Shown here in pieces: positions 40,098-47,333 of a stretch of 64,000 bases of DNA. Positions within the stretch are counted from its first letter, which is position 1, and each line of letters begins with the position of its first letter. A program made the translations under genes and the position numbers. Under the pieces are notes generated by a model. The model did not search any database. It was not told where the DNA came from and saw only the letters and a list, made by a program, of their open reading frames with translations. This stretch comes from Burkholderiales bacterium (lineage in GTDB: Bacteria; Pseudomonadota; Gammaproteobacteria; Burkholderiales; SG8-41). Location of the stretch: assembly GCA_030833315.1 (NCBI GenBank), contig JAURHM010000006.1:1-64000 (forward strand). The letters run 5' to 3'.

Positions 40098-40245
40098 ACC
40101 GTTCCGGTGCATGGCCCGAAAAAGCATGCACAATTTCTGTGGATAAGTCTGTGAGCAAACCCAAAAATACCGGGCCGGGACTGCGCCACACCGGCGCACA
40201 AATGAGCTTGCCTAAAATTTCATCAATTACGCCACTATCTGTACC

Positions 40246-40908
40246 ATGACCGCCCGGCAGCCCCTTCTTCACCTCATCGCCGCAGTCGCCGCCCTGCTGA
40301 TCACATCAGTTAGTGCGCACGAACCTCTGACGCTGCACATCGCACATCGCGCCGCAATACGCGACCTGCCGGCGCCCGCCGCCACAACACAGTCTCTGGA
40401 GTTACGTGTGGTCAATCTTGATCAATGGCCGGAAGCAGAGATCCACGCTGCTTTGCGCAGCACTGCACAAATCCTCGGCCAGTGCGGCATCCGAGTCACC
40501 CGCGCCGACCTGCTGCAGGTCACCGCGCCTGAAAGCCACCGTCATTTCGACACGCCGCGCTCGCGTGAACTGGCACGCGAGCTGGCACTGCCAAAACCCG
40601 CGGTTTTTTTTACCGCCGGCACGCGCCAGATCCCGGCCTTTGATGCCGAAGCCATCGGCCGCGGCAACAGCCGCACGCGCCCGGAACTTGCTGACACCGT
40701 GTGGATCGCCAAAGGTGCGCGCGACCTGGGTATCGTCGTCGCGCATGAACTCGCTCATGTACTGATGGACAGCGGCGAACATGACAGCAGTTCCGGCAAT
40801 CTGATGAGCGAGTCAACCACGCCGCAGAACACGCAACTCACCGCCGCGCAATGCGAACGCCTCAATGCCACCGGCCGGCGCAACGGCCTGTTGCGCGGCG
40901 TAGACTGA
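40246..40908 (+). CDS. Secreted metzincin-like zinc metallopeptidase candidate
   Basis: Signal peptide; VVAHELAHVLMDSGEHDSSSGNLMSESTT (HExxH, downstream His, NLM Met-turn-like). Confidence 0.65.
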   Translation: MTARQPLLHLIAAVAALLITSVSAHEPLTLHIAHRAAIRDLPAPAATTQSLELRVVNLDQWPEAEIHAALRSTAQILGQCGIRVTRADLLQVTAPESHRHFDTPRSRELARELALPKPAVFFTAGTRQIPAFDAEAIGRGNSRTRPELADTVWIAKGARDLGIVVAHELAHVLMDSGEHDSSSGNLMSESTTPQNTQLTAAQCERLNATGRRNGLLRGVD

Positions 40909-40913
40909 CGTTC

Positions 40914-42719
40914 ATGCCGATCACCCTGCAGCTGCAGCTGAGCGAAGGGCCGTGGAATCCGGGGCTGCAATCGCAGATCCCCGCCGATCTGCTGCCGTTG
41001 GCGACGATCTACCGGCCCGAATACGTACGCACCACGCTGCGCGAGGCGCGCGAACTTGCCGACCTCACCGGCCTGGCGATGGAAGAACTGGTGGTCTTCC
41101 GCCCCGAACGCCTGGTCGTGCATGAACTGCTCGCACTCGTCACCGCCGATTTCACGGTGGAAGACGGCCAGAAAACCGAAGATCTCGGCATCAACTTCAG
41201 GCGCATGACCGACGCGCTGCTGGCGCGTCACATCGCGCCGCAGATGCCGCAGATTGTTGCCGCTTACGAAACCGTCCGCAGTCGCCTGCACGAAGCCGCA
41301 ACCGCAGAGCTCGAACGCGGCCTCCACGAAGACATTGCCGCCGCCAAACCGGCGCGCGGCTTCTGGGCGCAGCTGTTCGGCAAACACAAAACCGCACCGG
41401 TCATTGATGAAGGTGAAACCACCGACGTGCGCGCAATCCGTCGCTGGGAAGCACAGTCACAGTCCGCTGCCGATCCGCTGGTTCGCGCCGCAGCTGCCGC
41501 ACTGGCCCGCGTCGCCACCGCGATGCTCAACCGCCATGGCCGGCTGTGGCGCGACCGCGCGCTGATCGCCCGCGTCGCCACCGATCTCGCCTGCAATGAA
41601 TACGGCAGCGAGGAAATCAGCCGGCTGATCGAGCCTTATGTGCAGCGCGGCGCCGACGCTGAAGGTTTCCGCCGCCTGCCGGTGCAGGCGCAGCCGGTGG
41701 TGATGAACACCAAGGGCGCCTCCGCCGCCGGTAAAAGCACATTACGCCCACTGCAGCGCGCGCTCGCCGCACGCATCGGCGTCAGCTGGCAGGATTTCGC
41801 GCTGATCAGCCCGGATATTTTCCGCAAGTTCCTGCTCGACTATTCGACGCTGGGGCCGGCCTATAAATACGCCGGCTCCTTCAGCGGCCACGAACTGCAG
41901 ATCGTCGATCACAAACTCGACCGCACGATGGCGCGCAAGGCCGAGCGCGGCCTGATGTCGCATCTGCTGATCGACCGTTTCCGCTTTGATACCTTCGCGC
42001 CGGCATCGGATGTCGCCGGCAGTAATCTGCTGACGCGTTTCGGCAGCCTCGTCTATCTGTTTTTCTTGATCACGCCGCCGGACGCCACCGTTGAGCGCGC
42101 TTGGTACCGCGGCCTCGAAGTCGGCCGCTACAAGGCTGTCGATGACCTGCTCGCGCACAACGTCGAAGCCTTCTCCGGCGTGCCCGAGGTGTTTTTCACC
42201 TGGGCGCTGGCCGCCGACAAGAAGGTGCATTACGAATTCCTCGACAACAGCGTCGCACTCGGCGAGACACCACGCACCGTGGCCTTCGGCTGGAACGGCG
42301 AAATGCATGTACTCGATGTCGGCGGCATGCTCGACATCGAGCGTTACCGCAAAATCCATGTCGAAGCGCGCACGCCGTGCGAGGTCTACCCCGGTGCCGC
42401 CGAAATGACGCCGGAGAACAACACCCAGTTTCTCGCGCAGTGCATCCGCCGCCTGCCCATCGTCAATTTTGCCGATCGCAGCAGCCAGCGCATCTGGCTG
42501 CGCATGGAACAGGGCAAGCCGGCGTGGTTCGATCCCGCCGCGCTGGCCCTCGCCATCACCGATCCCGAAACCCGCGCCGGCATCGCCGCGATTGCACCGG
42601 AAGCACTGAGCGGCCACAAGCTGCCGGAAGCCACCGCACGCATCCTCGACAGCGAGCGCCTGCACACACTGGGCAACTGGGGCCTCGCATGCGAAGATGT
42701 TGAAAAAATTCCTGAATAA
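40914..42719 (+). CDS. P-loop kinase, zeta-toxin-like domain protein (601 aa)
   Basis: Likely ATG 40914; Walker A-like VVMNTKGASAAGKSTLRPLQRAL; SPDIFRKFLLDYSTLGPAYKYAGSFSGHELQIVDHKLDR; MSHLLIDRFRFDTF. Confidence 0.65.
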   Translation: MPITLQLQLSEGPWNPGLQSQIPADLLPLATIYRPEYVRTTLREARELADLTGLAMEELVVFRPERLVVHELLALVTADFTVEDGQKTEDLGINFRRMTDALLARHIAPQMPQIVAAYETVRSRLHEAATAELERGLHEDIAAAKPARGFWAQLFGKHKTAPVIDEGETTDVRAIRRWEAQSQSAADPLVRAAAAALARVATAMLNRHGRLWRDRALIARVATDLACNEYGSEEISRLIEPYVQRGADAEGFRRLPVQAQPVVMNTKGASAAGKSTLRPLQRALAARIGVSWQDFALISPDIFRKFLLDYSTLGPAYKYAGSFSGHELQIVDHKLDRTMARKAERGLMSHLLIDRFRFDTFAPASDVAGSNLLTRFGSLVYLFFLITPPDATVERAWYRGLEVGRYKAVDDLLAHNVEAFSGVPEVFFTWALAADKKVHYEFLDNSVALGETPRTVAFGWNGEMHVLDVGGMLDIERYRKIHVEARTPCEVYPGAAEMTPENNTQFLAQCIRRLPIVNFADRSSQRIWLRMEQGKPAWFDPAALALAITDPETRAGIAAIAPEALSGHKLPEATARILDSERLHTLGNWGLACEDVEKIPE

Positions 42720-42731
42720 AAACATCGCCCT

Positions 42732-43910
42732 ATGAATATCCTGCTGCCCGGCGCCAATGGCGCCCTGACGACCTACACACTGCGCGGCCCCTGCGCCTTT
42801 GATGCCCCCACAGCGCCGTTCAACCGTGTCGCCTATGCCGCAGCGCATGTCGTCGCCGATCCGCGCGCCGCGATCAATCCCTGGCAGCAGACCGCGATCG
42901 ACTGGGACGCCACGCTCGCCTACCGCCATTACCTTTGGAGTCTCGGTTTCGGCGTCGCTGAAGCGATGGACACCGCACAGCGCGGCATGGGCATGGACTG
43001 GAAGGATTCGCTGGAACTGATTCAGCGCTCAGCGGCAGCAGCGCGCGATGTACCCGGCGCACTGCTCGCCTCCGGCTGCGGCACCGACCAGCTCGCCCTC
43101 GAAGAAGCCAAAACCCTCGACGACGTGATCCGCGCCTATGAAGAACAGATGGCCGCGATCGAACGCGCCGGCGGACGCCTGATCCTGATGGCCAGCCGCG
43201 CGCTGGTGCGCGTCGCGCGCAGCCCTGCCGATTACGAAAAGGTTTACGACCGCTTGCTGCGCCAGGCGCGCGAACCGGTGATCCTGCACTGGCTGGGCGG
43301 AATGTTCGACCCCGCACTGGAAGGTTACTGGGGCAGCCTCGAACTGCCGGGGGCGATCAACACCGCGCTGGGCGTGATCAACGCCAATGCGGCCAAGGTC
43401 GACGGCATCAAGATGTCATTGCTCGACAAGGACATCGAAATCGCGATGCGCCGCCGCCTGCCCGCGGGCGTGCGCATCTACACCGGCGACGATTTCAATT
43501 ACGCCGAACTGATTGCCGGCGACGGTGAAGGTTCGCTGCCCAACCACGGTCACAGCGATGCACTGCTGGGCATTTTTGACACCATCGCGCCGGCCGCCAG
43601 CGCCGCACTCGGCAAACTCGCGCAAGGTGATACAGCCGGCTTCCACCGCATCCTCGAACCGACAGTGCCGCTGTCACGCCATATGTTCCGAGCGCCGACC
43701 TGGCATTACAAAACCGGCGTGGTGTTCATGGCCTGGCTCAACGGCCACCAGGATCACTTCGTGATGGTGGGCGGCCAGCAGAGTGCACGGTCGCTGATGC
43801 ACTTTGTTGAACTGTTCAAACTGGCCGATGCAGCAGGATTGTTGCTGAAACCGGAACTGGCGGTGGCGCGAATGAAGAAGCTACTGAAATTGCACGGCGT
43901 CGGTCAATAA
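42732..43910 (+). CDS. DUF993 family protein (aldolase-like)
   Basis: 392 aa; FNRVAYAAAHVVADPRAAINPWQQTAIDWDATLAYRHYLWSLGFGVAEAMDTAQRGMGMDW. Confidence 0.8.
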   Translation: MNILLPGANGALTTYTLRGPCAFDAPTAPFNRVAYAAAHVVADPRAAINPWQQTAIDWDATLAYRHYLWSLGFGVAEAMDTAQRGMGMDWKDSLELIQRSAAAARDVPGALLASGCGTDQLALEEAKTLDDVIRAYEEQMAAIERAGGRLILMASRALVRVARSPADYEKVYDRLLRQAREPVILHWLGGMFDPALEGYWGSLELPGAINTALGVINANAAKVDGIKMSLLDKDIEIAMRRRLPAGVRIYTGDDFNYAELIAGDGEGSLPNHGHSDALLGIFDTIAPAASAALGKLAQGDTAGFHRILEPTVPLSRHMFRAPTWHYKTGVVFMAWLNGHQDHFVMVGGQQSARSLMHFVELFKLADAAGLLLKPELAVARMKKLLKLHGVGQ

Positions 43911-47042: not shown

Positions 47043-47333
47043 ATGAAACGGATGACAGGTGCAGTGTTGGCGGCGGTGATGCTGGCAGCAGCTCCCGCCT
47101 GGGCGGATCGCGGTGATGACCGCGGCCGGGGTCACGGACATGGGCATGGCCATGAGCATAAACACTGGAAGGATGCGCGGCATTACCACCCGCACTATGC
47201 TCCACCGCGCGTGGTTTACCGCGAAGTGGTGCGCCACCATGCTTACTACGCACCGGCACCGGTGTATTACGCGCCTCGGCCGGCAGCCGGGATCCATGTC
47301 GTGCTGCCGAATATTTATATCCCGATTCGTTAA
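47043..47333 (+). CDS. Small secreted His-rich protein
   Basis: MKRMTGAVLAAVMLAAAPAWADRGDDRGRGHGHGHGHEHKHWKDARHYHPHY...; RBS aaggag; followed by a terminator. Confidence 0.75.
   Translation: MKRMTGAVLAAVMLAAAPAWADRGDDRGRGHGHGHGHEHKHWKDARHYHPHYAPPRVVYREVVRHHAYYAPAPVYYAPRPAAGIHVVLPNIYIPIR

What the first reader, a model, noticed from the sequence alone, without database searches (positions are those of the whole stretch)
40246..43910. Three-gene operon: metzincin-like secreted protein, zeta-toxin-like P-loop kinase, DUF993
Gaps are 5 and 12 bp. The middle 601-aa protein has GASAAGKST followed by features like a zeta-toxin/chloramphenicol phosphotransferase fold (SPDIFRKFLLDYS..., conserved RFRFDTF), with long extra N- and C-terminal regions and no antitoxin gene. 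This is a plausible uncharacterised small-molecule or sugar-nucleotide kinase system rather than a toxin.
Basis: partly seen in the sequence, partly recalled or inferred. Interest (0 to 1): 0.6.

Follow-up and report, generated by a model that had tools for sequence, protein, structure and literature searches.

The report
Zeta-fold kinase linked to oxalate genes
The middle gene encodes an enzyme shaped like the zeta toxins that poison bacteria, but it has no antitoxin and its relatives repeatedly sit inside the gene clusters bacteria use to eat oxalate, so it is probably a previously undescribed metabolic kinase of oxalate users rather than a toxin.

Summary
The three genes and their 5- and 12-bp gaps are real. 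The 601-aa protein is a zeta-superfamily P-loop kinase: its AlphaFold model (pLDDT 84.7) matches PezT and zeta best, and the Walker A lysine and PDxxR aspartate are invariant. It adds a 240-aa helical N-terminal domain with no PDB match and a C-terminal extension.

Linkage with the metalloprotease and DUF993 exists only inside the window's genus, where the whole neighbourhood is syntenic; 0 of 42 outside loci have either gene. Instead, formyl-CoA transferase, oxalyl-CoA decarboxylase or OxlT lies within about 10 kb in 17 of those 42 loci, in Alpha- and Betaproteobacteria. In a class-wide sample all 4 kinase genomes carry formyl-CoA transferase, against 3 of 365 others (P 5e-8). The window's genome has the oxalate pathway on another contig. 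A sister subfamily without oxalate neighbours shares the catalytic motifs but differs in one pocket segment.

Best reading: a dedicated, accessory metabolite kinase of oxalate users, not a toxin. Substrate unknown; conventional glycerate kinase is present as well.

The parts
40246..40908 (+). secreted metalloprotease-like protein (220 aa): signal peptide by eye, HELAHVLMDSGEH...GNLM
   Evidence: conserved only in the window's genus; not linked to the kinase elsewhere
40914..42719 (+). 601-aa zeta-superfamily P-loop kinase, the subject of this report
40971..41687 (+). N-terminal all-helical domain (residues 20-258), no solved structural relative
   Evidence: best PDB E 0.6
41688..42251 (+). zeta-type kinase domain (residues 259-446)
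41715..41741 (+). Walker A GASAAGKST (residues 268-276)
   Evidence: G273, K274, S275, T276 invariant
41808..41825 (+). SPDIFR (residues 299-304), D301 = predicted catalytic base (zeta D67)
   Evidence: S299, P300, D301, I302, R304 invariant; aligned to zeta PDDLR
41961..42044 (+). pocket segment HLLIDRFRFDTFAP...GSNLLTRFG (residues 350-377); its second half differs in the sister subfamily
42252..42683 (+). C-terminal extension (residues 447-590), mixed strands and helices
42732..43910 (+). DUF993 protein (family with solved structure 4dnh)
   Evidence: linked to the kinase only within the genus
40128..40157 (.). conserved upstream element TGCACAATTTCTGTGGATAAGTCTGTGAGCA with a DnaA-box-like 9-mer

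Best explanation
The 601-aa protein is an ATP-dependent small-molecule kinase of the zeta-toxin superfamily that serves oxalate-using bacteria as an accessory metabolic enzyme, not as a toxin. Shown here: predicted fold, invariant catalytic motif, absence of a recognisable antitoxin gene, physical linkage and co-occurrence with oxalate catabolism genes. Inferred: K274 holds the ATP phosphates, D301 deprotonates a hydroxyl of the substrate, D354 (zeta E116) helps bind metal, and lid arginines (R395, R399, R405) stabilise transfer. The invariant pocket 350-377 binds one dedicated, probably acidic substrate, most likely a metabolite or CoA/nucleotide-type compound arising in oxalyl-CoA / formyl-CoA / glyoxylate metabolism. 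The helical N-terminal domain is a regulatory or substrate-presenting module. In the window's genus the gene has left the oxalate cluster and lies, by ordinary synteny, between a metalloprotease gene and a DUF993 gene, while the genome keeps the oxalate pathway elsewhere.
For: Fold: PDB best matches PezT 2p5t (E 7e-4, prob 1.0), PFKFB, zeta 1gvn/3q8x, AvrRxo1. A divergent member passes the Pfam Zeta_toxin cut-off (25.3 > 22.3) and two more reach 21.5-21.6. Linkage: frc/oxc/oxlT in the flank of 17 of 42 loci outside the genus, e.g. G413 GntR-oxc-frc-formyltransferase-fhs-Bug-TctB-TctA-kinase, three Methylobacterium-like genomes with frc 0.5-0.9 kb away, L091 with frc 0.36 kb away. Neighbours named by NCBIfam: oxalate/formate antiporter 567.8 bits (cut-off 335), formyl-CoA transferase 664 (504). 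Co-occurrence: class sample kinase 4, frc 7, both 4 of 369, P 4.6e-8; phylum sample kinase 5, frc 33, both 4 of 399, P 1.9e-4; 26 of 35 records with the kinase outside the genus carry frc over cut-off. Own genome: oxc 979 bits, frc 554.5 bits. Tree: the deepest branches of the main clade are oxalate-linked; the sister subfamily is not.
Against: 25 of 42 loci outside the genus have no core oxalate gene in the flank, though many flanks are short. In the window's own genus the kinase is not beside the oxalate locus, and no shared upstream motif was found. Many frc genomes lack the kinase (3 of 7 in the class sample, 29 of 33 in the phylum sample), and one Methylobacterium-like genome has a similar island without it, so it is not essential. 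In the window's family frc is nearly universal with or without the kinase. The substrate is untested.
Confidence: 0.68

Rival explanations
1. It is a zeta-type UNAG kinase toxin whose N-terminal helical domain acts as a built-in antitoxin, used as a growth brake.
For: Closest solved folds are PezT and zeta; the N-terminal domain is helical; RefSeq calls a sister-subfamily protein 'zeta toxin family protein'.
Against: No antitoxin gene; the N-terminal domain has no fold match to epsilon/PezA or anything else; zeta contacts to UDP-GlcNAc phosphates (T118, R120, PMC3062530) fall by motif on invariant F356/F358; genuine zetas occur separately in related genomes (L167-L169); linkage is to catabolic genes.
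Confidence: 0.1
2. It is the glycerate kinase of the glyoxylate/glycerate branch of oxalate assimilation.
For: Kinase fold, oxalate context, and a basic invariant pocket that would fit a small acid.
Against: The conventional MOFRL-type glycerate kinase is present in 17 of 17 high-quality genomes tested and in 25 of 32 in all.
Confidence: 0.07
3. The three window genes form a functional operon: the kinase works with the DUF993 protein and the secreted metalloprotease.
For: Gaps of 5 and 12 bp; order kept in most species of the genus.
Against: The whole neighbourhood is equally syntenic in the genus; in most of the genus a fourth gene intervenes; 0 of 42 outside loci have either partner.
Confidence: 0.08
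4. The oxalate link is passenger linkage: the gene travels in plasmid- or island-borne catabolic regions and has an unrelated role.
For: Patchy distribution; present on plasmids of Skermanella and Azoarcus and on a record filed as a Methylobacterium plasmid; linkage lost in several lineages.
Against: Co-occurrence persists where linkage is not seen; deep branches are linked; linkage occurs in different gene orders.
Confidence: 0.15

Closest known systems
Zeta/PezT toxins of epsilon-zeta and PezAT toxin-antitoxin systems (Pfam PF06414)
   Same: Kinase fold, Walker A, PDxxR catalytic motif, arginine lid
   Different: 601 aa instead of about 240-290; large helical N-terminal domain without known relatives and a C-terminal extension; no antitoxin; UNAG-contact residues replaced; oxalate gene context
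AvrRxo1 (NAD 3'-kinase of zeta fold)
   Same: Zeta-type fold (4z8v), kinase of a small metabolite (PMC5491322, PMC5087710)
   Different: Secreted effector encoded with its own partner protein; no sequence relation detected; different context
frc-oxc-OxlT oxalate catabolism gene clusters, with PanE-type reductases
   Same: The kinase gene is a recurrent member of, or neighbour to, these clusters
   Different: I found no description of a kinase in them in the papers held

Membership tests
Zeta_toxin superfamily P-loop kinase (PF06414) | zeta-type kinase fold | tested here: met
   Foldseek best PDB matches include PezT and zeta, prob 1.00, whole-model E 7e-4
Zeta_toxin superfamily P-loop kinase (PF06414) | Pfam score over gathering cut-off | tested here: inconclusive
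   Window protein: no hit. Azoarcus member 25.3 > 22.3; Methylobacterium members 21.5 and 21.6; 16 of 38 members hit weakly
Zeta_toxin superfamily P-loop kinase (PF06414) | Walker A lysine and catalytic aspartate (zeta K46, D67) | tested here: met
   K274 and D301 invariant; both aligned with real zetas by hhalign, P 0.0011 but Prob only 20.8
epsilon/zeta or PezAT toxin-antitoxin | adjacent antitoxin gene | tested here: not met
   none in window, none recurrent at loci outside the genus
epsilon/zeta or PezAT toxin-antitoxin | UNAG-binding residues T118 and R120 | tested here: not met
   By motif position F356 and F358 in LIDRFRFD, invariant; placed by motif, not by superposition
epsilon/zeta or PezAT toxin-antitoxin | toxicity through UDP-GlcNAc phosphorylation | not testable with these tools
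   needs an assay
AvrRxo1 | sequence homology and NAD kinase activity | tested here: inconclusive
   fold match only (E 0.011); activity not testable here
chloramphenicol phosphotransferase | sequence or fold match | tested here: inconclusive
   not among the 50 best PDB fold matches listed
MOFRL glycerate kinase | MOFRL domain | tested here: not met
   no Pfam hit in P0001; conventional enzyme is encoded elsewhere in the genome
DUF993 (third gene) | Pfam PF06187 | tested here: met
   E 1.9e-183, 610 bits
metzincin peptidase (first gene) | HExxHxxGxxH and Met-turn | tested here: not met
   HELAHVLMDSGEH has the third His two residues late; a GNLM Met-turn-like motif is present

The most novel reading that the evidence does not exclude
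A so far undescribed enzyme step or regulator of bacterial oxalate catabolism: a toxin-fold kinase recruited to phosphorylate a dedicated metabolite of the oxalyl-/formyl-CoA pathway, with a new helical domain that controls it and a pocket segment (residues 363-377) that separates it from a sister subfamily with another substrate.
Probability: 0.5. Interest if true: 0.75.

Novelty: new variant of a known kind. Interest (0 to 1): 0.56.

Why it matters
Zeta-fold proteins are annotated as toxins by default; a sister of this family already is. If the family is metabolic, it shows a toxin fold serving ordinary carbon metabolism. It would also mean that oxalate catabolism, which matters in soil carbon, plant roots and kidney-stone research, has an unrecognised ATP-using step or control. 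The gene is present in named Methylobacterium and Skermanella species, so the question is directly testable.

Tried and rejected
Toxin-antitoxin reading: no antitoxin, UNAG contacts not kept. Missing glycerate kinase: rejected as a necessity, MOFRL enzyme present in 17 of 17 good genomes. Functional tie to DUF993 and the metalloprotease: 0 of 42 outside loci. Phage origin: no relative in phage records or viral contigs. Shared regulatory motif between this operon and the frc locus in the genus: none at k = 9-12. N-terminal domain by fold: no match better than E 0.6. Literature for DUF993 and for oxalyl-CoA with zeta toxin: nothing held. Profile search of the PDB by sequence: only a weak P-loop hit.

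Full report
Observation. The three ORFs are at the stated coordinates with gaps of 5 and 12 bp. The third is DUF993 (E 1.9e-183; 5e-153 to the solved structure 4dnh). The first has HELAH and a GNLM turn but passes no peptidase model; its zinc-site residues are conserved in 11 relatives. The middle protein has no Pfam hit, only a noise-level NCBIfam hit and no PDB hit by sequence.

Distribution and synteny. Named relatives of the window's genus are Burkholderiales/Betaproteobacteria MAGs. The kinase is in 19 of the 21 genus genomes searched, and in two of the other eight genera of the family that were searched. In the genus the whole surrounding stretch is kept in order, so the closeness of the three genes carries no special weight. 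In most genus members a small His-rich secreted-protein gene lies between kinase and DUF993; in the window its homologue is at 47043-47333. In the two other genera the kinase stands apart from both partners. A scan of genome contigs gave 50 loci, plasmids four more in Skermanella, Methylobacterium bullatum and Azoarcus, phages and viral contigs none.

Oxalate link. Clustering the neighbours of loci outside the genus brought up the same genes repeatedly. NCBIfam names them oxalate/formate antiporter and formyl-CoA transferase, both over cut-off; of the two TPP-enzyme types, the one in the window's own genome is true oxalyl-CoA decarboxylase, and the other, seen in L087, scores below that model's cut-off. 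PanE-like reductases, SucCD/MtkAB-like ligases and a malonyl-CoA-synthase-like ligase also recur. A methylotroph reduces oxalyl-CoA to glyoxylate (Schneider 2012, cited in PMC3720670); that its enzyme is a PanE-type protein is from my own knowledge. A uniform tblastn over 42 loci found frc, oxc or oxlT near the kinase in 17, and DUF993 or P0002 in none. In G413 the kinase directly follows the tripartite transporter genes at the downstream end of the oxalate cluster; in three Methylobacterium-like genomes it is inside the island, and a congener has an island without it.

Co-occurrence. To avoid choosing loci, I used even samples. Class sample: kinase 4, frc 7, both 4 of 369 (P 4.6e-8, or 2.4e-6 without the window's genome). 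One of the four, G325, carries only the sister subfamily. Phylum sample: kinase 5, frc 33, both 4 of 399 (P 1.9e-4); three of these are one genus, so events are fewer than genomes. Among 35 records with the gene outside the genus, 26 have frc over cut-off. The window's genome has oxc (979 bits) and frc (554.5 bits) on contig C72. In the window's family frc is nearly universal and so uninformative.

Structure and residues. AlphaFold2 on 38 sequences: mean pLDDT 84.7, pTM 0.83. Best PDB folds are PezT, PFKFB and zeta, then adenylate kinases and AvrRxo1; many of the best viral matches are 'zeta toxin domain' proteins. One divergent member passes the Pfam Zeta_toxin cut-off. hhalign against real zetas from related genomes aligns Walker A and PDxxR (P 0.0011, but low probability). 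Zeta needs K46, D67, E116, R158 and R171 (PMC6356619), and T118 and R120 contact UDP-GlcNAc (PMC3062530). By motif the first three become K274, D301 and D354; T118 and R120 become F356 and F358. The N-terminal 258 residues fold on their own as helices (pLDDT 85.3) with no PDB match.

Tree. The family has a main clade of 46 sequences split by a long branch from the Azoarcus, G325 and G818 sequences (quick method, SH-aLRT support only). The deepest branches of the main clade are oxalate-linked, and the linkage label needs six changes on the tree, so loss of linkage in the window's lineage is the simple reading. The sister sequences keep 60-61 of 74 clade-invariant residues, including DRFRFD, but replace GSNLLTRFG by a different sequence: a candidate specificity segment.

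Verdict. Shown: predicted kinase fold, invariant catalytic core, oxalate association, no specific tie to the two window neighbours. Inferred: catalytic roles, dedicated acidic substrate, regulatory N-terminal domain. Unknown: the substrate.

Noticed in passing
window 40128-40157: Conserved upstream element TGCACAATTTCTGTGGATAAGTCTGTGAGCA (kept in 10 of the 11 relatives aligned) with TGCACA and TGTGAGCA as partly inverted ends, holding the only perfect DnaA-box 9-mer TTATCCACA of the window (0.12 expected).
   Followed up: partly
window 47043-47333: Small His-rich secreted-protein gene (GHGHGHGHEH) whose homologue in most of the genus sits between the kinase and DUF993 genes; here it lies about 3 kb downstream.
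   Followed up: partly
L087:5687-7447 and L148:5188-6951: Second type of TPP enzyme beside OxlT and Frc; the L087 copy scores only 213 bits to oxalyl-CoA decarboxylase (cut-off 739) and 441 to an acetolactate-synthase-like model: a possible distinct oxalyl-CoA decarboxylase or carboligase.
   Followed up: no
L103, L144, L163: Sister subfamily of the kinase (569-590 aa, pocket RVLHxTYxRY) without oxalate neighbours; the Azoarcus copy lies next to gabT and a PLP-dependent aminotransferase-family regulator. RefSeq labels it zeta toxin family protein.
   Followed up: partly
L162 (G593): Methylobacterium-like oxalate island without the kinase: a natural comparison for its role.
   Followed up: no
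window 1-64000: Many Bug/TctC-type solute-binding protein genes, most not next to transporter genes.
   Followed up: no
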